From Gemmatimonadota bacterium (GTDB taxonomy: Bacteria > Gemmatimonadota > Gemmatimonadetes > Longimicrobiales > Gaopeijiaceae): a stretch of DNA of 64,000 bases. Made by a program: the position numbers and the translations under genes. The notes beneath the pieces are model-generated. The model did not search any database, was not told the origin of the DNA, and saw only the letters and a program-made list of their open reading frames with translations. Positions 2,901 to 53,894 of this stretch are shown one piece after another (position 1 is the stretch's first letter; every line of letters begins with the position of its first letter). The stretch lies in NCBI GenBank assembly GCA_029262115.1, contig JAJCZZ010000031.1, positions 1 through 64,000 of the forward strand, in the 5' to 3' direction.

Positions 2901-3914
2901 CTACCCCGACCCCTTCTTGGTCGTTCTGAACGGCACGTACTCCGCCGCATCGATCGGATCGGGCCAGTGGTCCTCCAACTCGTCCAGCATGTCGAGTGGG
3001 CTCACCTTCTTACGGATCGAGACCAGGATGCGGAGGGTGGTCATGCCGGCCGGGTGCTCGATCGGATCGAGGAACCGCCAGTCCTTGGCGATGGCATTCT
3101 GGAGCGTCACCTCGACCACGCCCCGCGCCATTGCGGGGTCCTTCGTGTGGACCGAGAGGATTCCGTCCGTGGAGAGCCCCACCGACGGCTCACCGGCCAC
3201 TTCACGCAACCGCTCCCGTGCCTCGGGAGCCTGCGCGGTCAGGAGCTTCCGGTCACCGATGAAGAGGAGCTCTGCCGGGGCGCCGAGCGACTTCAGTGCG
3301 CCCACGTTGAATTTCCACAACAGCAGGATCAGCGTGTTGAACGCGATCGACGCGACGAAGGCGATGTCCAGCGCCTGCACGCCCGCCGCCAGGCCGAGCC
3401 CCATCATCAGGAAGATGTAGACCGCGTCCTTCGGGTCCTTCACGGTGGTTCGCCACCGGACAGCGGCCACGATCCCTGCCAGGGCGAACGCCAACGCCAG
3501 GCTGTTCTTGATGACCATGACCACCATTGCCACGACCATCGGCAGGATGATGATGGCGTGCACCAACGATCGGTCGTACCGGAGCCGGCGCGTGAACATG
3601 TAGACCCAGGCGACCGGCACGGCCAGGAGCACCGCTCCCAGGGCGATGAACACGGTGGTGAGCGACCGCTCGAGGATGACCGATGCGGCACCGATGGCCG
3701 GGGCGGGGGGCGGCATCTCGCCTCCCGTCAGGAAGCCGGCGTCGACCGGAGCACCCGCCAGGTTGAGCGGTGCCAGGAAAAAGGCCCGTGCCGCCGGGAG
3801 GTACGCGACCGCTGCGGTGGCGACCAACAACAGCACGATGTAGTACGTCAGGAAGCCGACGAACGGCACTTGACGTGTTCTCTTCCGTCGGGTGGGTGGG
3901 CTGTTTGTGGTCAT
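2901..3914 (-). CDS. DUF4956 multipass membrane protein
   Basis: This 337-residue protein has four predicted membrane segments (near residues 17-44, 78-105, 113-150 and 160-195) followed by a soluble C-terminal domain of about 140 residues, the organisation of DUF4956 proteins. That family often sits beside VTC polyphosphate-polymerase or CotH-type genes, but here neither is present. It is the last gene of the amino-sugar operon, 28 bases after the kinase stop. The open frame extends further upstream, but the upstream part lies antiparallel-free inside the kinase gene in another frame and is not protein-like, so ATG 3914 is preferred. Its job in this operon is unknown; a regulatory or transport accessory role is speculation. 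Confidence 0.75.
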   Translation of the reverse strand: MTTNSPPTRRKRTRQVPFVGFLTYYIVLLLVATAAVAYLPAARAFFLAPLNLAGAPVDAGFLTGGEMPPPAPAIGAASVILERSLTTVFIALGAVLLAVPVAWVYMFTRRLRYDRSLVHAIIILPMVVAMVVMVIKNSLALAFALAGIVAAVRWRTTVKDPKDAVYIFLMMGLGLAAGVQALDIAFVASIAFNTLILLLWKFNVGALKSLGAPAELLFIGDRKLLTAQAPEARERLREVAGEPSVGLSTDGILSVHTKDPAMARGVVEVTLQNAIAKDWRFLDPIEHPAGMTTLRILVSIRKKVSPLDMLDELEDHWPDPIDAAEYVPFRTTKKGSG

Positions 3915-3942
3915 GGTCCGGTCCGTTGGCCGTGGGTTCGCC

Positions 3943-4887
3943 TCACCATCCGGGGGGCATCTCCGGCAGCGATGCGGGGTCGAGTTCGGGAATCTCCAGG
4001 GCGAGCCGCGCCGCGCCCAACCCGGCGTCCGGCTGTCGCTCCAGCGGCTGCACGCCGTGGCGCGCCAGGACCCGCTCCATCTGCCTGCGCAGGGGAAGAC
4101 CCGGGCGCAGGAGCCCTCCCGAAAGCGCGATCCGGGGGGGCTCCCGCCACGGGCCCAGCCGGGCCAGGATCGTGATGACGTGTCCTTCGAGTTCCTCGAC
4201 GGCGGTGACGAGGATCTCTCCGGCCACAGGGTCTCCCTCACCCGCCGCCTCCACGACAACGGGCGCGAGCGCGGCAATGTCTCCCTTGTCCGCGTCTCCC
4301 GCCCATTGGACGAGTCGTTCCACCGTGTTGATACCCATAACGTCGAGAAAGACGTTGCGGAGGTTCGTCTCGGGCGCCCGCCCATCGGCGTTACGGGCCA
4401 CTCGGCGCAACGCCTCAAGGCCGATGGCGTACCCACTCCCTTCGTCCCCGATGTGATGCCCCCACCCACCGACCCGCCCTTCTCGCCCGTCGTCCGAGCG
4501 TCCCCATGCAATCGAGCCGGTACCGGCGATCAGGAGAATACCGGGGCCCCTGGGGAACGCGTCATTGAACGCGCCAACCACGTCGGTACCGATCCGGCAG
4601 ATGTCCGCGACGCCGTACCGTGACAGTTCGAGTTCGACCGCCGAGCGGGCGGCCTCACGGCCAGCACCGGCCAGGCCGGCCCAGATGGCACGAGCGGGGG
4701 GCGCGGAATCGGCAAGGCGCAGGGCTTCCAGGCACACATCACGCACGGCCTCGGCCGCCTCGGCCGGATTCCGAGCATCGGCAATGGCCGCCTGTCCCTC
4801 TGCCCGGGCGAGTTCCACCCCCTCCCTGTTGACGACGACCGCACGTGTCCTCGTGCCTCCGCCGTCCACGCCGATGTAGAACGTCAT
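3943..4887 (-). CDS. BadF/BadG-type N-acetylglucosamine/N-acetylmuramate kinase
   Basis: The 314-residue protein is an ASKHA-fold sugar kinase of the BadF/BadG/BcrA/BcrD family. Visible motifs are the phosphate-1 loop DGGGT at residues 8-12, a candidate catalytic aspartate in GTD (102), the phosphate-2 loop AGTGS at 121-125 and GDEGSG at 147-152, typical of eukaryotic-type NAGK and of bacterial MurK. It should phosphorylate GlcNAc and possibly MurNAc at O-6 with ATP in the cytoplasm. Its ATG overlaps the stop of the symporter gene by four bases (ATGA), so the two are translationally coupled. With NagB-LmbE in the same operon it supplies the 6-phosphate substrate. Whether it accepts GlcNAc, MurNAc or both cannot be read from sequence. 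Confidence 0.85.
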   Translation of the reverse strand: MTFYIGVDGGGTRTRAVVVNREGVELARAEGQAAIADARNPAEAAEAVRDVCLEALRLADSAPPARAIWAGLAGAGREAARSAVELELSRYGVADICRIGTDVVGAFNDAFPRGPGILLIAGTGSIAWGRSDDGREGRVGGWGHHIGDEGSGYAIGLEALRRVARNADGRAPETNLRNVFLDVMGINTVERLVQWAGDADKGDIAALAPVVVEAAGEGDPVAGEILVTAVEELEGHVITILARLGPWREPPRIALSGGLLRPGLPLRRQMERVLARHGVQPLERQPDAGLGAARLALEIPELDPASLPEMPPGW

Positions 4888-6323
4888 ACCGTCTCGGGCT
4901 GCTTGAAGACGACGCCGGCGAGGAGGCCGACGACGAAGGTGATGATGGATCCAACCGGAACGTACCACGGCCACGCCATCTGGTCGCGCAGCAGGGTGAC
5001 CGTTCCGATGCCCACCACCATGCCGATAATGACCGCGCCCTGTCCGGGCTTCTTCGTGAGAACGCCGAGCCCGAACGCGCCCAGCAGCCCACCGTACACC
5101 AGAGAGGCGATTCCCAGGCCAACCTCCACCGCCGAAGTCCCCCGCGACAACGGGATGAAGATGATCGCGCCGGCAATCAGGAGCCCGGCCCAGACCAACG
5201 TGAACAGCTTCCCGGCCCGAAGGATGCGCGCGTCGTCGTCTTCCGCGCCGGCCAGCGGCGCCCAGTAGTCGTAGGCGCTCGCCGACGCGAGTGAGTTGAT
5301 CGACGACGACAACGACGACATGGCCGCGGCAAACACCGCAGCGATGAGAAGGCCGGTCACGCCCGGCGGCAACCCCTCCAGCAGGAACTTCGCGAAGATC
5401 TCGTCGGACCGCTCGAACGGCTGCCCTTGATAGAAGGCCCAGAGGCCGAGGCCGACCAGAAGGAAGAGAATGAACTGCAGGATGACGCTGAACGCGGAGC
5501 CGACCAGCGCGGCCTGGCTCGCTCGAAGATCCTTCGTGGTGAGCAACCGCTGAACGATCAACTGGTCGGTACCGTGCGAGGCCATCGACAAGAAGGCGCC
5601 GCCGATCACTCCAGCCCAGAGCGTGTACGGTGTGTTGAGATCGAAGCTGAAGTCGAGCCACTGCGTCTTCCCGGCCGCCGCGGCGTCGGACATGATCTGG
5701 CCCCACCCGCCCGGGATCGCCACCTGGAGGGCGATCATCGCGGCGGCGGCGCCGAGCAGGTACAGAGACATCTGCACGGTATCGACCCATACGACCGCCT
5801 TGATGCCGCCGAAGTACGTGTAGACCACGGTCAGGGCGCCGATGACACCGATCGACACGGAGTAGGGCCACCCGGTGATCAGGGCCAGGGGGATGGCGGT
5901 CGCGAACAGTCGCACCGAGTCGGCCAGGAGCCGGGTCACCATGAAGACGGCCGACGTGAAGCGGCGCGCCCCCGTCCCGAAGCGTGCTCCGAGCAGTTCG
6001 TACGCGGTCGACAGCTCGCCGCGGTAGTACGCGGGAAGGAGCACACCGGCCACCACGAGCCGGCCCACCAGATATCCGATCGTCAGTTGCAGGAAGACCA
6101 GGCTGCCCACATATGCCACGCCGGGAATGCTGAGGAAGGTCAGCGTGCTGGTCTCGGTTGCCACAACCGACAGCATGACCGCCGGCCAGGGAAGCGAGCG
6201 GCTACCGAGGAAGTAGTCGCTCCCCGACGTCTGTCCACGTCCCATCCACGCCCCCCAGGCCGTGGTCCCCAGGAGGTACACAACCAGGACCGCGAGGTCG
6301 AGCGAGGTGAACGCATCACTCAC
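4884..6323 (-). CDS. Sodium:solute symporter (SSS family), first copy
   Basis: This 479-residue protein has about 13 hydrophobic segments and the N-terminal SSS pattern: a first helix after MSDAFTSLD, then the GSRSLPWPAVMLSVVATETS region and a long run of transmembrane helices with YFGGIKAVVWVDTVQ, where SSS carriers show a conserved tryptophan/aspartate motif. It would import a sugar or acid with sodium. Its place between NagB-LmbE and the kinase points to GlcNAc, MurNAc or a small muropeptide. The start is GTG at 6323 with GGAG seven bases upstream. It begins 42 bases after the nagB stop and its end overlaps the kinase start by four bases. Confidence 0.85.
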   Translation of the reverse strand: MSDAFTSLDLAVLVVYLLGTTAWGAWMGRGQTSGSDYFLGSRSLPWPAVMLSVVATETSTLTFLSIPGVAYVGSLVFLQLTIGYLVGRLVVAGVLLPAYYRGELSTAYELLGARFGTGARRFTSAVFMVTRLLADSVRLFATAIPLALITGWPYSVSIGVIGALTVVYTYFGGIKAVVWVDTVQMSLYLLGAAAAMIALQVAIPGGWGQIMSDAAAAGKTQWLDFSFDLNTPYTLWAGVIGGAFLSMASHGTDQLIVQRLLTTKDLRASQAALVGSAFSVILQFILFLLVGLGLWAFYQGQPFERSDEIFAKFLLEGLPPGVTGLLIAAVFAAAMSSLSSSINSLASASAYDYWAPLAGAEDDDARILRAGKLFTLVWAGLLIAGAIIFIPLSRGTSAVEVGLGIASLVYGGLLGAFGLGVLTKKPGQGAVIIGMVVGIGTVTLLRDQMAWPWYVPVGSIITFVVGLLAGVVFKQPETV

Positions 6324-6365
6324 GAGGCATCTCCGGGAACGGGTCCGATCGGTCCGGCTTCGTCA

Positions 6366-8267
6366 TTACATCTCACCGAGGTCGGCCGTGGCGAACGGAC
6401 TCGGACGGAGGCGCCGCCCGTCGCGTACCACCACGTACGCCTCCATCGCGAAGTAGGCCGGGAGGCCGAGCTTGCGGAGCGCCTCGGCCGTGCCCGTATT
6501 CCGATCCTCGACCCGCTGCCAGAACTCGCGGGGGTCGGGCCCGGGGAACGGGGCGACGTCCTTCTGCGACTGGTGCTTGAAAATGGCCATCTTCTTTCGC
6601 CGCAGTTCATCCGCGGACATGGGCACGAGCAGAGACGCTTCGGCCAGCGGCCACTCCTGCCACGCTCCCCGGTACAGCCACAGGTCCGGAGCCGTATCCT
6701 CGTACTGCTCGAGCGCCGTCGTGACGGCCTCGAGGCACATCCTGTGCGTGCCATGCGGATCGGACAGGTCTCCGGCCGCGAACACCATGTCGGGCTTGGT
6801 CTCGTGCAGGAAGTCGAGGGTGATGGCAACATCCCCCGGCCCGATCGGGTCCTTCTTCACCTTGCCCGTCTGGTAGAACGGGAGGTTCAGGAAACGGGCG
6901 TCGTCCGACGAGAGGCCGACCACCTCCAAGCCCCCGATGGCCTCGGCCTCCCGGATGACACGCTTGAGGTTTTGCACGGCCACGTCGTCGACATCGTCGG
7001 GTGCTTTCGCCGCCATACACGCCTCGATCCGATCGATCCAGCCGTGAAGCCCGTTGTCGTCGACATCGAGCACGCCCGCGGCCCGGCGCACGAACTCCAG
7101 GTATCGGCGGACGTCGTGGTCGAAGACCGCGATGTTCCCGGAGGTCTGGTACGCGACCGTGATCTCGTTGTCGTTCTCGACGAGCTTCCGGAGGATCCCG
7201 CCCATCGAGATCACGTCGTCGTCCGGATGGGGCGAGAACACGACGATACGACGCTCTCGGGGCAGACGGCTCTTGCCGCGGATCTTTGCCACCAGACTGT
7301 TGAACGCCCGCCCGTTCAGGGGCTCGGCGGACCCGTAGCGGGCCACCAGCCCGGACAGATGCCGCTCGCGGTAGTCCTCGTTACGGAGATGCAGGATCGG
7401 GCGACCGGACTCCTGACTCAGCCAGATGACCGCCTCCAACTCCTGGTCGGCGGTCCAATCGACGTCGCCCAGCAACCACGGCGTGCGGATCCGGGTGAGA
7501 TCGGCGGCCGCGGCGGGGTCCAGGTACACCGTGGCGTCCGGATGCTCCTGGAGGAACGTGGCGGCCACGTCCGCATGGATCGGACCCTCGACGGCCCTTC
7601 GAACGATGCTCGCCTTGTGCTCCCCCGTGGCGATCAGCGCGATCTCGCGCGCCTCCAGGATGGTCGCCACGCCCATGGTCACGGCCTCGGGCGGAACGTT
7701 CTCCTCGCCGAAGAAGTCCGACGCGGCATCGCCTCGGGTGATGGTGTCCAGGTAGAGCAGACGGGTGCGGGAATCCTCCCAGGAGCCGGGCTCGTTGAAG
7801 CCCACGTGGCCGCTTCGCCCGATGCCGAGAATCTGGAAGTCGATACCGCCCGCGTCGCGGATCGCCTGTTCGTAGGCCTCGGCATGCTCGTCCATCTCCT
7901 CGCGCGGGAGATCGCCGCGGGGGATGTGGATCTGATCGGACGGGACGTTCACATGGTCGAACAGATTTTCGTGCATGAAGCGGTGGTAGCTGTGCGGGCT
8001 ACCCGGCTCCATCGGGAAGTACTCGTCCAGATTGAACGTGACCACGTTGGAGAAGTCGAGCCCTTCCTCACCGTGGAGGCGTGCCAGCTCCCGGTAGATG
8101 CCCACGGGCGTGGACCCGGTGGCGAGTCCGAGAACGGCCGCGCGGCCTTCCTCCGCCCGCTCCCGAATCAGCCCCGCAATCCGCCCGGCCACCTCGTCGG
8201 AGATGGCCTGATGGTCGTCGAAGATACAGACGGAGATCCGTTCGAGCCGTCGTGCGCCGCCACTCAT
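6366..8267 (-). CDS. nagB: Glucosamine-6-phosphate deaminase fused to LmbE/PIG-L deacetylase
   Basis: The 633-residue protein joins two enzymes. Residues 1-290 are NagB: LATGSTP at 48-54, LDEY at 80-83, GHVGFNEP with catalytic His154, and Lys218 in TGEHK. Residues about 340-633 are a LmbE/PIG-L zinc deacetylase with HPDDD at 347-351 and the later zinc ligand pair H505/H508 in DPHGTH. NagB converts glucosamine-6-phosphate to fructose-6-phosphate and ammonia. PIG-L enzymes deacetylate N-acetylglucosaminyl groups, so the second domain could supply the NagA step. Similar long NagB proteins are known in Bacteroidetes. The ATG overlaps the upstream symporter stop by four bases. All metal and catalytic residues appear intact in both halves. 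Confidence 0.9.
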   Translation of the reverse strand: MSGGARRLERISVCIFDDHQAISDEVAGRIAGLIRERAEEGRAAVLGLATGSTPVGIYRELARLHGEEGLDFSNVVTFNLDEYFPMEPGSPHSYHRFMHENLFDHVNVPSDQIHIPRGDLPREEMDEHAEAYEQAIRDAGGIDFQILGIGRSGHVGFNEPGSWEDSRTRLLYLDTITRGDAASDFFGEENVPPEAVTMGVATILEAREIALIATGEHKASIVRRAVEGPIHADVAATFLQEHPDATVYLDPAAAADLTRIRTPWLLGDVDWTADQELEAVIWLSQESGRPILHLRNEDYRERHLSGLVARYGSAEPLNGRAFNSLVAKIRGKSRLPRERRIVVFSPHPDDDVISMGGILRKLVENDNEITVAYQTSGNIAVFDHDVRRYLEFVRRAAGVLDVDDNGLHGWIDRIEACMAAKAPDDVDDVAVQNLKRVIREAEAIGGLEVVGLSSDDARFLNLPFYQTGKVKKDPIGPGDVAITLDFLHETKPDMVFAAGDLSDPHGTHRMCLEAVTTALEQYEDTAPDLWLYRGAWQEWPLAEASLLVPMSADELRRKKMAIFKHQSQKDVAPFPGPDPREFWQRVEDRNTGTAEALRKLGLPAYFAMEAYVVVRDGRRLRPSPFATADLGEM

Positions 8268-10027
8268 GATCCAAGTCCCGGGATGGGATCGAGGGACTCC
8301 CTCGACGGGCGAAGGTTTCTCCCGATCCATACGAAACACGCAAACGCGATCGAGAGGAGAAGCACCCCGAAGCTCGTGGGGCCGAAGAGCAACTGACCGA
8401 TGCCGAAGAGGGAGGCGTACACCGCGGTGATTCCGGCCACCCAGTTGGTCCAGTTCAGCGGCCCCCCGTCCATAGGCTCCGCGCCCAGGCCGAGCGACCC
8501 CGCGACCCGCGCCCACCCCTTGCCCCCGGGGCGGACCCGGAGGTAGAAGCGGCGAAGGATCTCCTCGTCTTCCGGCTTCGTGACAAAGGTCACGATCAAC
8601 CACACCACCGTCGATGCCGCGACGGTCGCCAGCATGATGTACGCCCACTGCGTCGGGTCGTCAGGGTTCAGCCCGACACCGAACCAGAGGATGACGCTTA
8701 CCACGAGCGACGCCAGCATCGCGCTGATCTCGGACCACGCGTTGATGCGCCACCAGTACCACCGGAGGATCAGGACGAGGCCGGTCCCCGCGCCGATGGC
8801 CAGGAGGAAACGCCACGCCCCCTCGATGCTCGTCATGAAGTAGGTCACCACCAACGACGCGAGCATCAGAAGAACCGTGCTGGCCTTCGAGATCCGGACG
8901 AGCGTCCTCTGGTCCGACTCCGGTCGGATGAACCGGGCGTAGAGGTCGTTCACGAGATAGGAGGCGCCCCAGTTGAGCTGCGTGGAAATGGTCGACATGT
9001 ACGCCGCCGCAAACCCAGCAAGTACGAGGCCGGTCAGGCCGGGAGGCAGGAGGTCCATGATGGCCAGGACGTATCCCTGCTTTGGATCGTCCAGCCCCGG
9101 GTAGAGGATCGTCGAGGCCAGAGCGACCAGGATCCACGGCCACGGCCGGATGGCGTAGTGCGCCACGTTGAACCAGAGCGTGGCCAACACGCCGTCACGC
9201 TCGGTCCGCGCCGAGAAAATGCGCTGGGCGATATAGCCGCCACCGCCGGGCTCCGCTCCCGGGTACCACGAAGCCCACCAGTTCACGCCCAGATACACGG
9301 CAAGCGTGATGAGCGGCATCCACGCTTCGCCCGTGGCCGGAAACATCGACAGCGCGGCTTCGGACGAGCCGTACACCTCGGCCAGCCCCGTCTCCATGCC
9401 GGACAGGCCACCGACCGCTTCGACGGCGAAGTAGGCGAGAATGATGGCGCCCGCCACCGCCAGGCCGAACTGGAAGAAGTCGGTGACGACCACGCCCCAC
9501 AGGCCGGAGAGCACGGAGTAGGCGGCCGCGAGCGAGAAGCAGATCCCCAGGGCCAGCACATCAGGCACGTCCAGAGCGGTGCTGATGATCGACATCATGG
9601 CCAGATTCACCCACCCCATGATGATGAGGTTGATGGGGATGGCCAGATAGGCAGCGCGAAAGCCGCGGAGGAGCGCGGCCGGCTTGCCGCCGTAGCGCAA
9701 CTCGGTGAACTCGACGTCCGTGATGACGCCGGCGCGACGCCAGAGTCGGGCGTAAAAGAACACGGTCAGGATCCCGCTCATGACCATGTTCCACCACAGC
9801 CAGTTTCCGGCCACACCGTGCCGCGCGACCATCTCTGTAACGGCCAGCGGCGTATCCGCCGCAAAGGTCGTGGCGACCATGGAGGTGCCGGCGAGCCACC
9901 AGGGGAGCGCGCGCCCACCGACGAAGTACTCGGAAACCGATGAGCTGGCCCGCCGGGACATCGCGAGGCCTATGGCCGCGGCGAACAGGAAGTACGCCGC
10001 GATGATGGCCCAATCGAGTCCGGTCAA
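8264..10027 (-). CDS. Sodium:solute symporter (SSS family), second copy
   Basis: The 587-residue protein is longer than the first symporter and diverged from it. It has roughly 14 to 15 hydrophobic segments, with FVGGRALPWWLAGTSMVATT near residue 36 and a WWASWYPGAEPGGGGYIAQR loop typical of sodium:solute symporters related to transporters of sugars and N-acetylated sugars. A cytoplasmic stretch follows PEDEEILRRFYLRVRPGG before two final helices. It starts with TTG, overlapping the glucosaminidase stop by four bases (TTGA), and ends overlapping nagB by four. Having two carriers in one operon suggests that two products, for example GlcNAc and MurNAc, are taken up separately. The substrate assignment is from context only. 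Confidence 0.85.
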   Translation of the reverse strand: MTGLDWAIIAAYFLFAAAIGLAMSRRASSSVSEYFVGGRALPWWLAGTSMVATTFAADTPLAVTEMVARHGVAGNWLWWNMVMSGILTVFFYARLWRRAGVITDVEFTELRYGGKPAALLRGFRAAYLAIPINLIIMGWVNLAMMSIISTALDVPDVLALGICFSLAAAYSVLSGLWGVVVTDFFQFGLAVAGAIILAYFAVEAVGGLSGMETGLAEVYGSSEAALSMFPATGEAWMPLITLAVYLGVNWWASWYPGAEPGGGGYIAQRIFSARTERDGVLATLWFNVAHYAIRPWPWILVALASTILYPGLDDPKQGYVLAIMDLLPPGLTGLVLAGFAAAYMSTISTQLNWGASYLVNDLYARFIRPESDQRTLVRISKASTVLLMLASLVVTYFMTSIEGAWRFLLAIGAGTGLVLILRWYWWRINAWSEISAMLASLVVSVILWFGVGLNPDDPTQWAYIMLATVAASTVVWLIVTFVTKPEDEEILRRFYLRVRPGGKGWARVAGSLGLGAEPMDGGPLNWTNWVAGITAVYASLFGIGQLLFGPTSFGVLLLSIAFACFVWIGRNLRPSRESLDPIPGLGS

Positions 10028-13000
10028 TTGCCGCTCCGTGGCGTGACGGTCATGTCGGTAATGGCCAGGGCGGCCGCATCCGCGATGGCGCGGCGCAGCG
10101 GCACGTGCTTGCTGTTCTCACGCGTCGGGTGCACCCGGTTGGTGAGCACGATGACCCACAGGTCGAGGGTCGGGTCCATCCAGATGGAGGTTCCCGTATA
10201 GCCCGTGTGACCAAAGGCGTCGAGCGTCACGAACTGACCGCCGGACGAATTCGGACCCGGAGTGTCCCACCCCAGCGCCCTCGTGGCCGACGCGTCGTGC
10301 CGGCGAGTGAAGCGGCGCAGGACGTCCGTGTCCATCACGCGGACGTCGCGCCGTCGGGCCACCGGGCACGGCTCACCCGCGGTCTGGCCCGGTGTGCAGG
10401 CCGGCGCGACCCCGCCGTTCAGCATCATCCGCGCAAAGACCGACAGATCGACCGCCGTGCTGAAGAGCCCCGCATGGCCCGCGACGCCGCCCATGGCGTC
10501 CGCGTTCTCGTCGTGGACGCGGCCCCACACCATTGCGTTGCGCCACACGCCGTCGAATTCCGTCGTCGCGATCCGGCTGCGCAGGGCTGAGGCCGGCCGG
10601 TAGTCCGTATCGAGCATCCCCAGGGGACTCCAGACGTCCTCCCTCAAGTATTCGTCGAGCGAGCGTTCCGTGATCTCCTCCATCACCCACGCCAAGGTCA
10701 TCACGCCCAGGTCGGAGTACGCCGTGCGGCTCCCCGGAGCGACCTCGAGCGCCTCGTCGGCAACCGCGTCTTTGTACTTCTGGAGGGTCGGGTCCTCGAT
10801 GTCGAGGTACCAGCGACGGAACGGGGTCAACCCCGCCCGGTGAAGGAGAAGATGCTCGATGGTCACCTGGTTTTTTCGCGGGTCACCCCGGGACCACCAC
10901 GGCAGGTACTTCACCACCGGATCGTCGAGCGACATGCGCCCCTCGCCGACCAGGCGCATGGCCATGGTCGTGGTGCCCACCACCTTCGAGACGGAGGCGA
11001 GGTCCCAGATCGAGGTCGGCGTGACCGGGCGACCGGAGCCGTACGCCAGTTCGCCGTATCCCTCGAGCTTCACCAGACGGCCCTTCCGCCCGACGGCCAC
11101 CGCAATGCCGGAAGCGGCGGAGTCCGCGATGGCGGCGAGCACGAGGGCGTCGATGAACGCCAGGGCATTGCCGTCCATGTTCACGGACGCGGGGGAGGCG
11201 ACGGTTTGGGGCGCCCGGGCGCGGCCTGCGTCTTCCCGGTCGACAATGCCGGCCGCGACCAGGGGGTCTTCCGTGACGACGACCGCCCGGAAGTCCGAGA
11301 CCCTCGCGCGGTCCAGCCCCTCGCCGATGTCGTGATACGGAGGAAGGGGAATGGGCAGGCGGCCGGAGATGGGCGCCTCGCCGAGGACGGCCTTCACGGC
11401 CGCGCGCTGGGACACGCTCCGGTCGCCCCACGCCAACACATAGCTCTGAACGTCCGAAAAGGCGGCCAGCAGGTACGGGTTGCCCAACGACACCACGACC
11501 GTGGGCTTGGCGCGAACGGCAGCGTGAACGAGGTCGCGGAGTTCGGACGGAACGACGCTCGGGGCCGACCCCGCCCCCGCGGAGACGTAGGCGCTCACGA
11601 TCACGCGGTCGGCGTTGCCGACGGCGTCGAGCGCCCGGGCGTAGTCCACGCCGGTGCTCCGCTCGTCGAGCGTGACCGTGCGCAGGGCCGAGAGCCGCTC
11701 CTGAAGGGCCGGTCCCATCACGCGGTTGGCCCACAGCCACGAGGAGCGGGCGTAGACGATGTGCGCGACCCGTCCGGCCTCCTCCGCCCGCATCGGCACG
11801 AGGTTGTCCCGATCCCTCACCAGCACGATCGAGCGCGAAGCGGCGGTGTCGGCCAGAGCCAGATGCGCACCCGAGCCCACGATGTCGTCGACGGCGTCGA
11901 GGTCGGTGTATCGGTTCTCGTGCAGCCCGAGGCGCGCCTTCAAATCAAGCAGCTTGCGCGCCGATTCCGCGACGCGGTCCCGCGTCAGGCGTCCGCTCTC
12001 CACGGCGGCGACCACCGCGTCGATCGCGACCGGGATTTCGCGAGGAGAAAGAATGACGTCCGCGCCGGCCTCCAGGGCGCGGATCGAGGCCTCACCAATC
12101 CCGTACCCGTCCGCGATGGCACGCATCGACATGGCGTCCGTGAAGAGGATCCCGTCGAAGCCCATCGATTCGCGGAGCAGGCCCGTCATGAACTCGGGCG
12201 AGAGCGTGGCGGGCTCGGACGAACCGACGACCTCGGGCACCGCGACGTGGGCCGTCATGATGGCGTCGACGCCCTCGTCGATGGCCGCCCGGAACGGGAT
12301 CAGCTCCAGCGTATCGAGGCGAGCCATGTCCGCGTCGACGACCGGAAGATCCACATGGGAGTCGCTCGTGGTGTCTCCGTGTCCCGGAAAGTGCTTGCCG
12401 GTGGTGAACGCGCCTCCGTCGTGCGCCCCACGAATGAACGCGGCGCCCAGCCGCGCGACGGCCTGCGGGTCGGCCCCGAACGACCGCGTGTTGATAACGG
12501 GGTTGTCCGAATTCGAGTTCACGTCCAACACCGGAGCGAACAGCAGGTGCACACCCACCGCCCGGGCTTCCCTGGCGGTGATCCGTCCGTACTCGTACGC
12601 GAAGCGGTCGTCCCCGATGGCCCCGAACGCCATGGTCGGCGGGAACGCCGTGCCGCCGCTCTGCGAGAGCATGGACGGAAGCGCGTAGACGTTCCCCAGG
12701 CGCATGCCCGGCCCACCGCTCTCGAAATCCGACGTCACCAGAAGCGGGACGTCCGCGAGTTCTTGGAGCGCGTTGAGCTTGGCGACATAGGCGTGGGGGG
12801 TGCCAATCGACGGAGACACCCCGCCGATGCGGTTTTCCGTGACCCACTCCCGGAGCGGCTCGAAGTCGGGGGCGGTCGGAGAGACGTAGCCGCCCGGCAT
12901 CCACTCGATGACGAGCTGGCCCACCATCTCCCGGAGCGTGAGCCGGGCCATGGTGTCGTCGACCCATCGCTGCGCGGCGTCGTCGAGCGTGGCCGCGATA

Positions 13001-13143
13001 ACCGAGGCGGGCGGATCGACCCCGGCCGCCGGAGGCTGGAGTTGCGCCGTGCCACCGCCGCACGCCGCCAGACCCGCGACCGTCGTCAAGGTCAGCCGGG
13101 AGCGGCTCCCCCCGCGATTCCCTTCGCGGCTCCCGTCGATCAA
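10024..13143 (-). CDS. nagZ: GH3 beta-N-acetylglucosaminidase fused to beta-lactamase-like serine hydrolase (lipoprotein)
   Basis: The 1039-residue protein starts with a lipoprotein-type signal (LAAC, Cys28). Residues about 55-400 form a GH3 NagZ barrel with the family signature KHFPGHGDT at 250-258, which holds the catalytic histidine loop; a second GH3-like domain reaches about 650. The C-terminal 350 residues are a class-C beta-lactamase/AmiE-like domain with SVSK (717-720), YSD (809-811) and HTG (979-981), so the serine-hydrolase triad is intact. It should release GlcNAc from muropeptides and cut a peptide or amide bond in them, anchored in the envelope. TTG start overlaps the upstream GH3 stop by four bases. 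It combines what Bacillus subtilis encodes as separate NagZ and AmiE. Exact amidase or esterase activity is inferred. Confidence 0.85.
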   Translation of the reverse strand: MIDGSREGNRGGSRSRLTLTTVAGLAACGGGTAQLQPPAAGVDPPASVIAATLDDAAQRWVDDTMARLTLREMVGQLVIEWMPGGYVSPTAPDFEPLREWVTENRIGGVSPSIGTPHAYVAKLNALQELADVPLLVTSDFESGGPGMRLGNVYALPSMLSQSGGTAFPPTMAFGAIGDDRFAYEYGRITAREARAVGVHLLFAPVLDVNSNSDNPVINTRSFGADPQAVARLGAAFIRGAHDGGAFTTGKHFPGHGDTTSDSHVDLPVVDADMARLDTLELIPFRAAIDEGVDAIMTAHVAVPEVVGSSEPATLSPEFMTGLLRESMGFDGILFTDAMSMRAIADGYGIGEASIRALEAGADVILSPREIPVAIDAVVAAVESGRLTRDRVAESARKLLDLKARLGLHENRYTDLDAVDDIVGSGAHLALADTAASRSIVLVRDRDNLVPMRAEEAGRVAHIVYARSSWLWANRVMGPALQERLSALRTVTLDERSTGVDYARALDAVGNADRVIVSAYVSAGAGSAPSVVPSELRDLVHAAVRAKPTVVVSLGNPYLLAAFSDVQSYVLAWGDRSVSQRAAVKAVLGEAPISGRLPIPLPPYHDIGEGLDRARVSDFRAVVVTEDPLVAAGIVDREDAGRARAPQTVASPASVNMDGNALAFIDALVLAAIADSAASGIAVAVGRKGRLVKLEGYGELAYGSGRPVTPTSIWDLASVSKVVGTTTMAMRLVGEGRMSLDDPVVKYLPWWSRGDPRKNQVTIEHLLLHRAGLTPFRRWYLDIEDPTLQKYKDAVADEALEVAPGSRTAYSDLGVMTLAWVMEEITERSLDEYLREDVWSPLGMLDTDYRPASALRSRIATTEFDGVWRNAMVWGRVHDENADAMGGVAGHAGLFSTAVDLSVFARMMLNGGVAPACTPGQTAGEPCPVARRRDVRVMDTDVLRRFTRRHDASATRALGWDTPGPNSSGGQFVTLDAFGHTGYTGTSIWMDPTLDLWVIVLTNRVHPTRENSKHVPLRRAIADAAALAITDMTVTPRSGN

Positions 13144-15050
13144 CGGCCGCCCTCAGAGGCCGAACGCGGCGTAAGAGAAATTCCGTCACCGATGTCGAAG
13201 AGCGACGGCGAACCGGTCGGGACCCGGCCGTCGACCGCGAAGTCGGCGAAGAGGGCGCGCGCCGCGGCTCTCTGACTCGATTCGGAGTTGCCCCAACCGA
13301 GCACGTACGCGCGCACGTCCGGAAATTCGGACAAGAGGTACGGATTACCGAACGAGACCACCACGTGCGGAATATTCCGACGACCGAGCTCCTTGACGAA
13401 GTCGCTCACCTCTTTGGGCAGCGCCACCGAGCCGGAGTACGAAACGGCGGAGACATAGGTGCTCACGACCACGAGAGCGGCGTTGCGGGATTGACGCATG
13501 AGGCCTTCCCACAACCCGACGCTCGCGTCTCGGGTGACCTCGGCGGTCCGGAGCCGACGGTACGTCCGTCGCAACTCCTGGTTGAAGTAGCGCCCGGCAA
13601 GGACGTCGTAAGAGCGCCGGAAGCTGACCGAGAGAACGGTCGCCGACGCGGTACCGCGGAGCGGCAGCAGATCACCCTGGTTGCGGAGCAGGGTGATCGA
13701 GCGGCGCGCGATCTCGTCCGCGACCGCCTCGTGCGCGGGAATGCCGACCTTCTTCCCCACGTCCTCAATCGGAACGGTCCGATTCTCGTGAAGGTCGAGG
13801 CTCTCTTTCAGCCGTAACAATGACAGCACGGAGCGGTCGATCCGGGCCTCCGGGATCCGGCCGGATCGGACCGCCTCGACGATGCCGTCCCGGGCGGGAC
13901 GCACCGCTGGCGGCATCAGGATCACGTCGGCTCCGGCCTCGACGGCGAGCACGGCCGCCTCGCCAGTGCCGAGCCGGCCCGAGATGGCCGACATGTCCAT
14001 GGCGTCCGTAAAGACGATCCCGCCGAAGTTCATGTCGTCGCGCAGGAGGTCGGTCAGGACGGCCGTGGACAGGGTCGCGGGATCGCCATTGCCACCATTC
14101 AACGACGGGGTCGTGATGTGGGCGGTCATGATGGCGCCCATGCCCGCGTCGATGGCGGCCTGGAACGGCTTCAGTTCGACCGAATCCATGCGGGCTCGGT
14201 CGTGGTCGATGGTCGGAAGTGCCAGGTGGGAGTCCGTGCCGGTATCTCCATGGCCCGGGAAGTGTTTCCCCGTGGCGATGCCTCCGTTGTCCTGCACACC
14301 GCGCACGAACGCCGCGCCCAACCGGGCCACCAGATCCGGATCCTCACCGAACGACCTGGTGTTGATGATGGGATTCGCGGGATTGTTATTCACGTCGAGC
14401 ACCGGTGCGAAGGGTACGTGCACACCGAGCGCCCGGGCCTCGATCGCGGTGATGCGCCCCATCTGATAGGCCAGATCCGCGTCTCCCGTCGCTCCGACCG
14501 CCATGAGCGGCGGAAAGTTGGTGGCGCCCCCCATCGGGATCGTGCCCTGCACCGCTCCGTTGAAGCGGAAGCCCGCGCCCGTCTCGAGATCAGCGGCCAC
14601 GAGCAGCGGGTACTTCGCGTGCGTCTGGAGGTCGTTCAGCTTTGCGGCAACTTCGGTGGGCATTCCCACGGACATGATGACGCCGCCGATCCCGTCGTCG
14701 ATGAACCGAGCGATCCGCTCGTGTCCCGGCGACCCTTCCGGAGCGAAGTCTCCGATGACGAAGGGCATCATCATCTGCCCCACCTTCTCTTCCAACGTCA
14801 TCTCGGCCAGCGTCCGCTCCGCCCAGGATGCGGACGGTCGGACGAACGCCGGAACGGGCGGTTGGGCCGCACTGTCCGTGCGCACCGTTTCCTCGGGAGG
14901 CGGTTGCGCTGGACCGGGGGCGGGTTCGGGCGGCGGGGCTGGAACCGGAGGAGTGGGCGCGCCGCCGCAGGACAGCGACGCGACCACGAGGATGCCTCCC
15001 GCGACGCGTGATGCTCTGGATCGGAGGCGATTCGTGTGTGGGGGCGCCAT
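13140..15050 (-). CDS. nagZ: GH3 beta-N-acetylglucosaminidase, lipoprotein
   Basis: Starting at ATG 15050 gives a 636-residue protein with an n-region rich in arginine, a hydrophobic core and a lipobox ending SLSC (Cys28), followed by a proline/alanine linker. The open frame extends 48 codons further upstream without a signal-like start, so 15050 is preferred. The catalytic barrel shows the NagZ signature KHFPGHGDTGTDSH near residue 257 and conserved blocks FAPVLDVNNNP and INTRSFGEDP. A second domain follows but there is no beta-lactamase-like module. It is a paralogue of the next gene and the first gene of the seven-gene minus-strand operon, 72 bases from the divergent namZ start. Envelope-located removal of GlcNAc from cell-wall fragments is the likely role. 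Confidence 0.85.
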   Translation of the reverse strand: MAPPHTNRLRSRASRVAGGILVVASLSCGGAPTPPVPAPPPEPAPGPAQPPPEETVRTDSAAQPPVPAFVRPSASWAERTLAEMTLEEKVGQMMMPFVIGDFAPEGSPGHERIARFIDDGIGGVIMSVGMPTEVAAKLNDLQTHAKYPLLVAADLETGAGFRFNGAVQGTIPMGGATNFPPLMAVGATGDADLAYQMGRITAIEARALGVHVPFAPVLDVNNNPANPIINTRSFGEDPDLVARLGAAFVRGVQDNGGIATGKHFPGHGDTGTDSHLALPTIDHDRARMDSVELKPFQAAIDAGMGAIMTAHITTPSLNGGNGDPATLSTAVLTDLLRDDMNFGGIVFTDAMDMSAISGRLGTGEAAVLAVEAGADVILMPPAVRPARDGIVEAVRSGRIPEARIDRSVLSLLRLKESLDLHENRTVPIEDVGKKVGIPAHEAVADEIARRSITLLRNQGDLLPLRGTASATVLSVSFRRSYDVLAGRYFNQELRRTYRRLRTAEVTRDASVGLWEGLMRQSRNAALVVVSTYVSAVSYSGSVALPKEVSDFVKELGRRNIPHVVVSFGNPYLLSEFPDVRAYVLGWGNSESSQRAAARALFADFAVDGRVPTGSPSLFDIGDGISLTPRSASEGGR

Positions 15051-15122
15051 GCGCGCGGGTCGCTTCCGTCTGTTGAGGTTCGAACGATTGACGCGGCCGT
15101 ACGTGAGCCCGAAGGTTGCCAT
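15051..15122. promoter_or_regulatory. Divergent control region between nagZ and namZ
   Basis: This 72-base gap separates the two arms of the amino-sugar locus and must hold both promoters if the starts at 15050 and 15123 are right. GAAGG, seven bases before ATG 15123, is a plausible ribosome-binding site for namZ. No regulator gene (MurR, NagR or similar) lies in the locus and no clear dyad is visible here. Confidence 0.45.
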
Positions 15123-16454
15123 ATGACAACAACCTACGAGCGGCGCCCTCGGCGCCAGGGCCAGATCCGGAAGAAACGTACGGAGACCCTCCAACGGTCA
15201 CAATCTATTATGCCCGCCATTCTCCTGGCTTGTTCCATCGGTGCGTGCGCGCCGTCCGGAGAGGCGGAAGGGGGTCCCCCGGTCGAAGGGGTCGAGGCGG
15301 AGCGCGTGGCGGTGCGCCCCGGGGTGGACGTACTGCTGTCCGACTCGCTTCGAGTCGTGCGGGGCCGACGTGTCGGGCTGGTGACCAACCACACGGGTCG
15401 CAACGCCGACGGTGTGCTCACGATCGACCTGCTGGCCGATCATCCAGAGGTCGACCTCGTCGCGCTCTACTCGCCGGAACATGGGATCCGTGGCGAGGAG
15501 GAGGCCGGCGCCCAGATTGCGTCCGGTACTGATGCGGCGACTGGGCTTCCCGTCCATTCGCTGTACGGACAGACTCGCCGCCCCACGCCCGAAATGCTGG
15601 AGGGTGTGGATGTCCTCGTCTTCGATATGCAGGATATCGGCGCCCGGTACTACACATATGTCTCGACCATGGCGTACGTGATGGAAGCGGCGGGTACGAA
15701 CGGGATCCCCGTCGTGGTTCTCGACCGTCCGAACCCGATTCGAGGCGATGTCGTGCAGGGCAACGTACTCGAACCGGAGTTCTCCACTTTTGTCGGCTTG
15801 TACCCGGTTCCCATGCGCCACGGGATGACCCCCGGCGAACTCGCTCGAATGTACGTCAGCGAGTACGGCATCGAAGTGGAGTTGCACGTGGTTCCCATGG
15901 ACGGATGGACGCGCTCGATGACCTACGACGACACCGCACTGCCCTGGGTGCCCCCGTCCCCGAACATGCCGTCGCTCGAAAGCGCGCTCGCCTACCCCGG
16001 CACCTGCCTGTTCGAGGGGACGCCACTGTCGGTCGGCCGTGGTACCGATCAGGCGTTCCAATGGGTCGGCGCACCGTGGCTGGACGCGGCGGCCCTGGCG
16101 GAGGCGCTGAACGGCTACGGTATCGAGGGCGTGACGTTCGAAGCGACGACGTTCACGCCGTCCTCGCCGGGTGACGGAAAGTTCGCCGAGACGGAGGTCT
16201 CCGGCGTCCTTCTCGTACCTGGGGATACCGGGTACGATGCCCCGCGCGCGGCAGTCGCGATGTTGGTCGAGACGTTCCGTATGTCGGGGGACCGCTGGTC
16301 GTGGCGGGAGTCTCACTTCGACCGGCTCGCCGGAACCGACGATCTGCGTGAGGGCATCGAGAGCGGTCGGACCTTCGAAGAGCTGACGGCATCGTGGGAC
16401 GGTGGGTTGGCGGCGTTCGAAGCGAAGCGTGCCCCGTATCTGATCTACGAATGA
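15123..16454 (+). CDS. namZ: Exo-beta-N-acetylmuramidase NamZ (DUF1343, GH171)
   Basis: The 443-residue product is a DUF1343 protein, the family founded by B. subtilis NamZ (GH171), which removes terminal MurNAc from peptidoglycan strands. Family blocks seen are GLVTNHTGRN, LYSPEHGIRGEEEAG (with the candidate catalytic glutamate), DMQDIGARYYTYVSTM, LDRPNPI and AYPGTCLFEGT. The start at 15123 gives a long arginine/lysine-rich leader before MPAILLACSIGAC, a lipoprotein-like signal; a later ATG at 15210 would leave a signal only 13 residues long. Its stop overlaps the start of the M14 peptidase gene (ATGA). Paired with GH3 glucosaminidases it allows complete sequential removal of both wall sugars. 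The start choice is uncertain, the family is not. Confidence 0.9.
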   Translation: MTTTYERRPRRQGQIRKKRTETLQRSQSIMPAILLACSIGACAPSGEAEGGPPVEGVEAERVAVRPGVDVLLSDSLRVVRGRRVGLVTNHTGRNADGVLTIDLLADHPEVDLVALYSPEHGIRGEEEAGAQIASGTDAATGLPVHSLYGQTRRPTPEMLEGVDVLVFDMQDIGARYYTYVSTMAYVMEAAGTNGIPVVVLDRPNPIRGDVVQGNVLEPEFSTFVGLYPVPMRHGMTPGELARMYVSEYGIEVELHVVPMDGWTRSMTYDDTALPWVPPSPNMPSLESALAYPGTCLFEGTPLSVGRGTDQAFQWVGAPWLDAAALAEALNGYGIEGVTFEATTFTPSSPGDGKFAETEVSGVLLVPGDTGYDAPRAAVAMLVETFRMSGDRWSWRESHFDRLAGTDDLREGIESGRTFEELTASWDGGLAAFEAKRAPYLIYE

Positions 16455-17797
16455 GGGGGGATGGGCGGGAAGGCGGGCGGCGGAGCGGCGGGGAGTCGAC
16501 GGCAGCGGGCCGAACGCTGGCGATGGCCGTGACGCTCGCGGCCGCCGGCTGTGCCGCAGGGATGGGCCGCACGCCCGACCCGGCGCCCACGACGCCGGCC
16601 GAACTCATCGGGCTGTACGAAGCGGTGAGCGTGCCGGGTCTGGAGGATCGTCGCTTCGATCACGCCACATACTGGGCGGCGGTGGAGCCGTACCTGGCAT
16701 CTCCCTGGGCTGTTTCTGTCGCAGGAACGTCCGCCGAAGGCAGGGAAATCCGTCGCCTGACTCTGGGGTCCGGCTCCACGCGCATCCTTTTGTGGTCGCA
16801 GATGCACGGGAACGAGAGCACGGCGTCGATGGCGCTGGCCGACATCGTCCGCTTCTTCCATGACCGGCCCGACCACCCCCTGGCGCGGCGCGTCGCCCAA
16901 GGCGCGACCGTGCACGTCATTCCCATGCTCAACCCAGACGGCGCCGAGCGCTTCCAGCGCCGGAACGCGCAGGGCGTCGACGTCAATCGTGACGCGCGCC
17001 GACTGCAGACGCCGGAGGGGCGCACCCTCAAGGCGGTCCGGGACGAGGTCGAACCGCACTTCGGTTTCAACCTCCACGATCAGGGTGCGGCGGTGCGGGT
17101 CGGAGACACCGACCGCCAGGCCGCGATCGCGCTGCTGGCGCCCGCCTTCAACGAGGCGCGGGACATCGACGACAAGCGCTACCGGGCCATGCAGGTCGCG
17201 TCGCTCCTCATTGAGGCCATGGATCCGCTGGTCGGTGGGCACATCGCGAAGTACGACGACAGCTTCAACCCTCGTGCCTTCGGCGACCTGATGGGCGCCT
17301 GGGGTGCCAGTACGGTGCTCATCGAGTCCGGTGGATGGGCTGACGATCCACAGAAGCAGCACCTGAGGAAGACCAACTTCGTCGGGATCCTGAGCGCACT
17401 GGACGGCATCGCCACCGGCCGGTACGAGGGGTACGACGACGACCCGTACGAGCGGCTTCTGTACAACGGTCGACGCGTCCCCGACCTGCTGATCGCGGGT
17501 GGCACGATCGCGGTGCCGGGGCTTCCCCCTCTCGAGGCCGACCTCCTGGTCAACTACGAGCGTCCCCTGATGCGCGAGGGCGGGCTCATCACGGACGTCG
17601 GCGACATGGGCGACTCCGACGCGCAGGACACGGTGGACGTGTCCGGACTCTACCTGGTGCCGATGCGGGCCGCGCTGGACGAAGACGGCGGCCTGAACAC
17701 GGGAGCGCCCGCCCACTTCATCGTGGCCGAGGATGCGGCCGGGCATCGGGTCCGGTTCCGGATCGAGGGCAGCCTTCCGGCCCGACCGCGGCGCTGA
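16451..17797 (+). CDS. M14 zinc carboxypeptidase, lipoprotein
   Basis: The 448-residue product belongs to the M14 carboxypeptidase family. Zinc ligands are visible in QMHGNEST (HxxE) and FNLHDQ, the substrate-binding NR lies in VDVNRDARR, and the catalytic glutamate is in VLIESGG. A C-terminal beta-rich domain of about 100 residues follows. The N-terminus has a lipobox-like AAAGC after an arginine-rich start, so it is probably anchored in the envelope. The ATG at 16451 overlaps the namZ stop by four bases, which argues strongly that it works on the same substrate. M14 enzymes include peptidoglycan-peptide hydrolases such as gamma-D-glutamyl-meso-diaminopimelate peptidases; trimming muropeptide stems is the inferred role. 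Confidence 0.8.
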   Translation: MRGDGREGGRRSGGESTAAGRTLAMAVTLAAAGCAAGMGRTPDPAPTTPAELIGLYEAVSVPGLEDRRFDHATYWAAVEPYLASPWAVSVAGTSAEGREIRRLTLGSGSTRILLWSQMHGNESTASMALADIVRFFHDRPDHPLARRVAQGATVHVIPMLNPDGAERFQRRNAQGVDVNRDARRLQTPEGRTLKAVRDEVEPHFGFNLHDQGAAVRVGDTDRQAAIALLAPAFNEARDIDDKRYRAMQVASLLIEAMDPLVGGHIAKYDDSFNPRAFGDLMGAWGASTVLIESGGWADDPQKQHLRKTNFVGILSALDGIATGRYEGYDDDPYERLLYNGRRVPDLLIAGGTIAVPGLPPLEADLLVNYERPLMREGGLITDVGDMGDSDAQDTVDVSGLYLVPMRAALDEDGGLNTGAPAHFIVAEDAAGHRVRFRIEGSLPARPRR

Positions 17798-20671: not shown

Positions 20672-20901
20672 GGGTCCAACCTCGACGCCGCCTGGTCGGT
20701 GGCGGACGGCTCGGTGGTGCCTGAGCGAGCGGGATGAGCGGTGGCGTCCGACTCGGCGGCGACCGATCGAGCGACCTGAGCGGTGGCGGGTGGCTCGGCG
20801 GCGACCGAGCGAGCGGGCTGAGCGGTGGCCAGCGTCGTCCCGGGGGGCCGCCCCGTGCCTGGCCCCCCGTCCTCCCGGGGGCGCCGGCCTCGATCGCTCA
20901 C
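20668..20901 (-). CDS. Small Ala/Thr/Pro-rich repeat protein between PadR and ADOP
   Basis: This 77-codon frame starts with GTG overlapping the PadR stop (GTGA at 20901-20898) and stops overlapping the ADOP start (GTGA at 20671-20668), so ribosomes could pass through all three genes. It consists of a charged start (VSDRGRRPRED) and about three 14-residue repeats of the form ARS-V-AAE-ATAQ, encoded by the 42-base DNA repeats below. No domain is recognised. It may be a real coupling peptide or only the by-product of repeat expansion that moved the ADOP start away from PadR. Confidence 0.4.
   Translation of the reverse strand: MSDRGRRPREDGGPGTGRPPGTTLATAQPARSVAAEPPATAQVARSVAAESDATAHPARSGTTEPSATDQAASRLDP
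20698..20829. repeat. Three 42-base tandem repeats
   Basis: Units lie at 20698-20739, 20740-20781 and 20782-20823, followed by six further matching bases. Each begins GGTGGCG and ends TGAGC on the plus strand. The unit is a multiple of three, so copy-number change keeps every frame. The array separates the PadR stop from the ADOP start in module 1; the other two modules have no such insert. Confidence 0.8.
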
Positions 20902-21242
20902 GCGGTTTCCGGGCGCACGTTCCGCGAGCGGACCGCGCCCACCAGCCGCTCGAGACGAGCGACTTCGTCGGCCAGCACGGCCTGACCCGATGGCGTGATC
21001 CGGTAGTACTTCCGTCTCGGATCGGCTTCGGGGCCCGGGGCAGCCACCATCTGGACCAGCCCGGCGTCACTCATCTCCGAAAGAGATCGGTACAGGGTGC
21101 CTGGGCCCAGTTCGACGGTGCCCTCGGAAACGGCTTCCGCTGCATCCGCGATCCCGAGCCCATGGAGATCACCGGTCGAGAGGGCCAGCAGTATGTGAAG
21201 TACGGCGGGACGAAGTGGCAGTGCGGACGGATCGGGGGCCAC
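20898..21242 (-). CDS. PadR-family transcriptional regulator, module 1
   Basis: The 114-residue protein is a PadR winged-helix repressor: LRPAVLHILLALSTGDLHGLGI, the recognition segment LGPGTLYRSLSEMSDAGLV, and the wing with RRKYYRITPSGQAVL. The start is set at GTG 21242, five bases after AGAGGAG; an earlier in-frame GTG at 21269 abuts the 17-base repeats and has no such site. It is short at the C-terminus, lacking the long dimerisation helices of larger PadR proteins, as in the s2 group. It is coupled to the small frame and ADOP downstream. It probably binds the dyad at 21424-21457 and controls its own operon. The ligand is unknown. Confidence 0.85.
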   Translation of the reverse strand: MAPDPSALPLRPAVLHILLALSTGDLHGLGIADAAEAVSEGTVELGPGTLYRSLSEMSDAGLVQMVAAPGPEADPRRKYYRITPSGQAVLADEVARLERLVGAVRSRNVRPETA

Positions 21243-52608: not shown

Positions 52609-53850
<1,242 letters not shown>

Positions 53851-53894
53851 ATCTCTCACATCGAGGCGGCCGCCGTCCGTGACCAGGAGGAATA

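What the first reader, a model, noticed from the sequence alone, without database searches (positions are those of the whole stretch)
2901..17797. Self-contained muropeptide-sugar scavenging locus
Nine genes in two divergent, tightly coupled units encode every step from cell-wall fragment to central metabolism: NamZ, two GH3 enzymes, an M14 peptidase, two sodium symporters, a BadF kinase and NagB-LmbE. Four-base overlaps join most genes. Classical recycling parts (AmpG, NagA, MurQ, AnmK, PTS) are absent from the locus. This suggests envelope-side digestion with import of free sugars, using sodium carriers instead of PTS or AmpG. The exported lipoprotein enzymes also fit feeding on other bacteria's walls. 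Fate of MurNAc without MurQ is unexplained.
Basis: partly seen in the sequence, partly recalled or inferred. Interest (0 to 1): 0.7.

Follow-up and report, generated by a model that had tools for sequence, protein, structure and literature searches.

The report
Gemmatimonad cell-wall sugar salvage locus
A conserved gene cluster in a poorly studied soil and water phylum very probably digests cell-wall fragments outside the inner membrane and imports the free sugars with sodium carriers; the plan is known from other bacteria, but one step appears to use a fused replacement for the usual deacetylase.

Summary
Eight genes (window 3943-17797, two divergent units, five 4-base overlaps) encode NamZ, a NagZ-type GH3, a GH3 fused to a serine hydrolase, an M14 peptidase, two sodium symporters, a BadF kinase and a NagB-LmbE fusion. 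The ninth gene, DUF4956 (2901-3914), was not found near the locus in relatives and is probably not part of it. The order is kept across several genera of the same family. MurNAc's fate is not a mystery: murQ lies on another contig of the same genome, above its curated cut-off. AmpG, AnmK, NagA and PTS EIIC gave no credible match genome-wide, and this BadF kinase is the only one, so it most likely phosphorylates both GlcNAc and MurNAc. The serine-hydrolase half of the GH3 fusion is 32% identical to E. coli YfeW, encoded beside murQP; an AmiE-like role is likely. The plan (digest outside, import free sugars, kinase, MurQ) is known from Bacillus subtilis and Tannerella. The newest part is inferred: the LmbE half of NagB-LmbE replacing NagA. 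In this family MurQ is in 103 of 116 genomes, NagA in 1, the fusion in 40. A new variant of a known kind.

The parts
3943..4887 (-). BadF-family sugar kinase; only one in the genome; probably phosphorylates both GlcNAc and MurNAc
   Evidence: PF01869 117.5 bits; best solved relative is N-acetylmuramic acid/N-acetylglucosamine kinase 8zo3; only PF01869 match in genome; Thr before catalytic Asp102 in 7 of 8 and GGWG in all 8 family kinases
4884..6323 (-). Sodium:solute symporter 1 (SSS1), next to the kinase; inferred carrier of GlcNAc or MurNAc
   Evidence: PF00474, TIGR00813 above cut-off; found with NagB-LmbE in six loci of the family and in L021
6366..8267 (-). NagB-LmbE fusion: GlcN-6-P deaminase plus PIG-L deacetylase domain; inferred replacement for NagA plus NagB
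   Evidence: NF002557 873 bits, TIGR00502 above cut-off; PHPDD and DPHGTH invariant in 30 proteins; AlphaFold model with LmbE half on BshB and diacetylchitobiose deacetylase, Z about 20
8264..10027 (-). Sodium:solute symporter 2 (SSS2), only about 26% identical to SSS1; inferred carrier of a second sugar or disaccharide
   Evidence: PF00474; kept only in L086, L097 and L021 among the relatives; comparison with SSS1
10024..13143 (-). GH3 NagZ-type glucosaminidase fused to a C-terminal serine hydrolase of the beta-lactamase family; lipobox-like LAAC
   Evidence: PF00933 and PF00144; KHFPGHGDT...DSH dyad, TDAM, ASVSK, YSD, GHTG motifs; 32% identity to E. coli YfeW and to a Deinococcus hydrolase between murQ and GH3
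13140..15050 (-). GH3 NagZ-type beta-N-acetylglucosaminidase with signal sequence; start may be 15122
   Evidence: PF00933 290.8 bits; best solved relative GH3 beta-N-acetylglucosaminidase 6k5j, then B. subtilis NagZ/YbbD 3bmx; dyad and nucleophile motifs
15123..16454 (+). NamZ exo-beta-N-acetylmuramidase, lipobox-like IGAC
   Evidence: PF07075 299 bits and PF20732 148 bits; PEHGIRG and DRPNP motifs
16451..17797 (+). M14 zinc carboxypeptidase-like lipoprotein, presumed to trim stem peptides
   Evidence: PF00246 48 bits; HGNE, NLHD, IESGG motifs; weak match to MpaA, 20.6 bits against cut-off 157
2901..3914 (-). DUF4956 membrane protein, 28 bp after the kinase; probably not part of the system
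   Evidence: PF16316; no match near the locus in any syntenic relative

Best explanation
The locus is a peptidoglycan-sugar salvage system of Gemmatimonadota. Outside the inner membrane, lipoprotein enzymes take muropeptides apart: NagZ-type GH3 domains release GlcNAc, NamZ releases MurNAc, the serine-hydrolase half of the fusion probably removes the peptide from MurNAc (AmiE-like), and the M14 peptidase trims the peptide. Two sodium symporters import the free sugars. One BadF kinase makes GlcNAc-6-P and MurNAc-6-P. MurQ, encoded elsewhere, turns MurNAc-6-P into GlcNAc-6-P and D-lactate. The NagB-LmbE fusion then deacetylates GlcNAc-6-P (LmbE half, in place of NagA) and deaminates and isomerises GlcN-6-P to fructose-6-P (NagB half). 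Shown here: gene identities, conserved catalytic motifs, conserved gene order, presence of MurQ, no credible match for NagA, AnmK, AmpG and PTS EIIC. Inferred: substrates of each enzyme and carrier, localisation, the LmbE reaction, the amidase role.
For: Gene families. MurQ over cut-off on contig C104. No match for AnmK, AmpG, PTS EIIC; no NagA, best 34 bits against a cut-off of 226 with all candidates scored. Only one BadF kinase in the genome, closest in sequence to the MurNAc/GlcNAc kinase 8zo3. Conserved clustering in several genera. Family of 116 genomes: MurQ 103, NamZ 111, NagB-LmbE 40, NagA 1. Among 30 fusion-bearing genomes of several phyla, NagA is over cut-off in 7, all Bacteroidota; it is present in all 3 Selenomonas/Mitsuokella genomes that have NagB without LmbE. 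LmbE metal motifs invariant; model matches amino-sugar deacetylases. Serine-hydrolase half homologous to YfeW beside murQP and to a Deinococcus gene between murQ and GH3. Precedents: sodium-symporter-superfamily MurT plus MurK in Tannerella (PMC5790795); murQRP-amiE-nagZ-ybbC in B. subtilis (PMC5061867); RmNag3 GH3-beta-lactamase (PMC6987092).
Against: No biochemical evidence for any protein. The transporters are only placed in the SSS superfamily, and Tannerella MurT was not available for comparison. In most MurQ-bearing genomes of the family neither NagA nor the fusion was found, so GlcNAc-6-P must have another fate there. Pedobacter, Rufibacter and Flavisolibacter carry both NagA and the fusion, so the LmbE half need not replace NagA everywhere. 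SSS2 is missing in several syntenic relatives. The MAG is 95.7% complete, so absences are not certain.
Confidence: 0.78

Rival explanations
1. The locus is mainly for chitin or chito-oligosaccharide use: GH3 enzymes release GlcNAc from chitobiose, and NamZ and M14 are passengers.
For: GH3 glucosaminidases including RmNag3 act on acetyl-chitooligosaccharides (PMC6987092); GlcNAc enters the same kinase and NagB-LmbE steps.
Against: NamZ and M14 lie in the same cluster in L047, L100 and L104, and one or the other in L021, L086 and L103; the serine hydrolase is homologous to genes beside murQ; MurQ and NamZ are nearly universal in the family. No chitinase seen in the locus.
Confidence: 0.1
2. The LmbE half does not deacetylate GlcNAc-6-P; it acts on another small molecule (for example a GlcNAc conjugate as in BshB or MshB), and GlcNAc-6-P is used directly for wall synthesis or by an unrecognised deacetylase.
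For: Structural matches of the LmbE half include BshB and MshB with Z similar to diacetylchitobiose deacetylase; most MurQ-bearing genomes of the family lack both NagA and the fusion; some Bacteroidota have both.
Against: Fusion to the enzyme that acts on the product of deacetylation, tight coupling with kinase and symporter, and no NagA in this genome.
Confidence: 0.2
3. The system serves only turnover of the cell's own wall rather than feeding on other bacteria. This is compatible with the biochemical pathway above; it differs only in the source of the fragments.
For: NamZ and MurQ are present in nearly all family members, as expected for housekeeping; B. subtilis uses the same plan for its own wall (PMC5061867).
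Against: The full locus is present in only part of the family; there is no endolytic secreted wall hydrolase in the locus either way.
Confidence: 0.4

Closest known systems
Bacillus subtilis murQ-murR-murP-amiE-nagZ-namZ (ybbIHFEDC) cluster
   Same: NagZ, NamZ and a serine hydrolase act outside; free sugars enter; MurQ converts MurNAc-6-P (PMC5061867; NamZ identity of ybbC and the beta-lactamase family of AmiE from own knowledge)
   Different: PTS MurP replaced by sodium symporters plus kinase; no MurR in the locus; murQ unlinked; NagZ and serine hydrolase fused; extra M14 peptidase and NagB-LmbE
Tannerella forsythia murTKQ
   Same: MurNAc import by a sodium-symporter-superfamily protein, then an ATP-dependent BadF-fold kinase, then MurQ (PMC5790795; PMC10465942)
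   Different: Tannerella also has AmpG, links murQ to the kinase, and lacks MurNAc synthesis; its MurK is only distantly similar to this kinase (25.8 bits)
Clostridium acetobutylicum-type MurK (8zo3; organism from own knowledge)
   Same: Closest solved relative of the kinase; named N-acetylmuramic acid/N-acetylglucosamine kinase
   Different: Only moderately similar (115 bits); substrate of the window kinase not tested here
Rhodothermus marinus RmNag3 (GH3 plus beta-lactamase domain)
   Same: Same three-domain architecture, signal peptide, no AmpG; authors propose peptidoglycan turnover (PMC6987092)
   Different: No adjacent glycoside hydrolase genes there, and R. marinus has AnmK (PMC6987092)
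E. coli murQP-yfeW
   Same: YfeW is 32% identical to the serine-hydrolase half and sits beside murQP
   Different: PTS import; YfeW is not fused to NagZ
PRK02122 / NF002557 NagB-LmbE proteins
   Same: Full-length member, 873 bits
   Different: The model name says only 'deaminase-like'; the role as NagA substitute is proposed here

Membership tests
B. subtilis-type MurNAc recycling cluster | NamZ and NagZ encoded together | tested here: met
B. subtilis-type MurNAc recycling cluster | AmiE MurNAc-L-alanine amidase | tested here: inconclusive
   Serine hydrolase domain homologous to YfeW and to a Deinococcus gene between murQ and GH3; B. subtilis AmiE itself not available for comparison
B. subtilis-type MurNAc recycling cluster | MurP PTS transporter | tested here: not met
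   no PTS EIIC match in the genome
B. subtilis-type MurNAc recycling cluster | murQ in the cluster | tested here: not met
   murQ is on contig C104, locus on C31
Tannerella-type MurT-MurK-MurQ route | sodium-symporter-superfamily transporter next to a BadF-fold kinase | tested here: met
   precedent PMC5790795
Tannerella-type MurT-MurK-MurQ route | kinase uses MurNAc | tested here: inconclusive
   GGWG loop and Thr before the catalytic Asp fit MurNAc tolerance as described for MurK; no assay
Tannerella-type MurT-MurK-MurQ route | MurQ in the genome | tested here: met
   352 bits against cut-off 302
E. coli AmpG/AnmK/NagA cytosolic recycling | AmpG, AnmK and NagA present | tested here: not met
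NagB-LmbE (NF002557) | full-length match over curated cut-off | tested here: met
   873 bits against 384
NagB-LmbE (NF002557) | PIG-L metal motifs intact | tested here: met
   H347, D349, D350, H505, H508 invariant in 30 proteins
GlcNAc-6-P deacetylase (function) | deacetylation of GlcNAc-6-P | not testable with these tools
   fold match to amino-sugar deacetylases only

The most novel reading that the evidence does not exclude
NagB-LmbE is a bifunctional GlcNAc-6-P deacetylase/deaminase that has replaced NagA by a non-homologous enzyme in Gemmatimonadota and probably in several other lineages, while NagA has been lost from almost a whole bacterial family that keeps MurQ and NamZ.
Probability: 0.6. 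Interest if true: 0.55.

Novelty: new variant of a known kind. Interest (0 to 1): 0.42.

Why it matters
It gives a testable route for peptidoglycan-sugar salvage in Gemmatimonadota, without PTS, AmpG or AnmK, and a concrete candidate for a non-homologous replacement of NagA. No paper in the searched library links the LmbE domain to GlcNAc-6-P deacetylation, though that library is incomplete. If right, annotation of NagB-LmbE as plain 'glucosamine-6-phosphate deaminase' misses half its function, and metabolic models wrongly report a gap at NagA. The work also exposes a gap of its own: many relatives have MurQ but neither NagA nor the fusion.

Tried and rejected
Missing MurQ as the puzzle: rejected, murQ found. 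DUF4956 and the amidohydrolase at 1937-2824 as parts of the system: not found near the locus in any relative. Divergent NagA hidden by a strict threshold: repeated over the family at E 1e-9, only one full match among 116; there only the 15 best candidates per genome were scored. In the own genome all 62 candidates were scored and only short, weak amidohydrolase pieces appeared. Promoter and terminator scans gave no more than shuffled sequence. Literature search for LmbE as GlcNAc-6-P deacetylase found nothing relevant. The papers on NamZ and on B. subtilis AmiE were not held.
Full report
What is there. The window is contig C31 of a 5.45 Mb assembly, 95.7% complete. The closest named relatives of the fusion protein are Gemmatimonadota MAGs. 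From 17797 down to 3943 two divergent units meet near 15050-15123. The plus-strand unit encodes NamZ and an M14 peptidase; the minus-strand unit encodes a GH3, a GH3 with a C-terminal serine hydrolase domain, a sodium symporter (SSS2), NagB-LmbE, a second symporter (SSS1) and a BadF kinase. Five junctions are four-base overlaps. DUF4956 follows after 28 bp.

Are the enzymes intact? Both GH3 domains keep the KHFPGHGDT...DSH dyad and the TDAM nucleophile motif and are closest to GH3 beta-N-acetylglucosaminidases, including B. subtilis NagZ/YbbD. They are 45% identical to each other. The serine hydrolase keeps SxxK, YSD and HTG. M14 keeps its zinc motif and a glutamate in an IESGG motif. NamZ keeps PEHGIRG and DRPNP. 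The GH3-serine hydrolase fusion, NamZ and M14 carry lipobox-like signals that fit the usual consensus; the single GH3 has SLSC, a weaker fit, though some relatives have clear ones. Export and lipid attachment are therefore inferred.

Is the locus conserved? Searching related genomes with the window proteins shows much the same order in L086, L097, L087, L100, L103 and L104, from genera g39, g19, g6 and g9 of the same family, and in L047, with partial forms in L091 (g8) and L021. SSS2 is kept only in L086, L097 and L021. DUF4956 was not found in any of them. In L013-L021 a stand-alone serine hydrolase sits before NagB-LmbE in most loci, so the fused domain also exists as a separate gene.

Whole-genome context. 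MurQ is present, 352 bits against a cut-off of 302. AnmK, AmpG and PTS EIIC give no match. NagA gives only short weak amidohydrolase pieces. The BadF kinase is the only PF01869 protein. A second NamZ without an evident signal sequence lies on C85 beside another serine hydrolase.

The kinase. Its best solved relative is an N-acetylmuramic acid/N-acetylglucosamine kinase (8zo3). In Tannerella MurK, MurNAc binding depends on small residues at 133-135 in place of a bulky Glu or His, and on Thr94 before the catalytic Asp (PMC10465942). Here the corresponding loop reads GGWG in all eight family kinases and the residue before Asp102 is Thr in seven of eight; human NagK and the MurNAc/GlcNAc kinase 8zo3 share the GGWG loop. 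With one kinase and a MurQ in the genome, dual use of GlcNAc and MurNAc is the simplest reading. It is an inference.

The NagA gap. In 116 genomes of the family MurQ occurs in 103, NamZ in 111, NagB-LmbE in 40 and NagA in one (repeated at E 1e-9, which added only one short weak piece). In 70 high-quality genomes the counts are MurQ 65, NamZ 68, NagB-LmbE 30, NagA 0. In genomes of other phyla that carry the fusion, NagA is absent from most and present over the cut-off only in Pedobacter, Rufibacter and Flavisolibacter; the three Selenomonas/Mitsuokella genomes, with NagB but no LmbE, all have NagA. The LmbE half has invariant PHPDD and DPHGTH motifs in 30 proteins from several phyla. The predicted structure is confident (pLDDT 88); its N-terminal half lies on NagB (Z 38) and its LmbE half on BshB, diacetylchitobiose deacetylase, MshB and other amino-sugar deacetylases (Z about 17 to 21). 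A shared fold does not prove the reaction. Fusion to the next enzyme of the pathway, the missing NagA and the intact metal site together make GlcNAc-6-P deacetylation the most likely function.

The amidase step. The serine hydrolase half is 32% identical to E. coli YfeW (PBP4B), encoded immediately after murQ and murP, and 32% identical to a Deinococcus serine hydrolase encoded between murQ and a GH3 gene. B. subtilis encodes AmiE beside NagZ in its murQ cluster (PMC5061867). The fusion is therefore read as NagZ plus an AmiE-like MurNAc-peptide amidase; a D,D-carboxypeptidase role is not excluded.

Comparison with what is known. Digestion outside and import of free sugars is established in B. 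subtilis (PMC5061867). Import of MurNAc by a sodium-symporter-superfamily protein followed by a kinase and MurQ is established in Tannerella (PMC5790795). The GH3-beta-lactamase architecture was characterised in Rhodothermus and already linked to AmpG-free peptidoglycan turnover (PMC6987092). What differs here is the combination in one locus, two symporters, the unlinked murQ and the likely replacement of NagA. Verdict: a new variant of a known kind, moderately interesting.

Limits. Everything rests on sequence, gene order and a predicted structure. The own genome is a draft.

Noticed in passing
family of 116 genomes: At least half of the high-quality genomes of the family have MurQ but neither NagA nor the NagB-LmbE fusion, so the fate of GlcNAc-6-P in them is unexplained.
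   Followed up: partly
L133:5093-6265 (own genome contig C85): A second NamZ, 43% identical to the first, starts at the domain without an evident signal sequence and lies beside another beta-lactamase-family serine hydrolase.
   Followed up: partly
L134 (own genome contig C104 around murQ): murQ sits divergently next to an M20 peptidase and not with other recycling genes.
   Followed up: partly
window 17903-21070, 23057-25828, 53825-56956: Long ORFs of MacB/FtsX type: Pfam matches for the latter two; the first judged only by eye from its translation.
   Followed up: no
window 35066-41811: Adjacent TamB and Omp85 genes, as expected of a two-membrane cell.
   Followed up: no
L130 (Deinococcus sp. 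NW-56 plasmid): A compact AnmK-MurQ-serine hydrolase-GH3 cluster on a 375 kb plasmid.
   Followed up: partly
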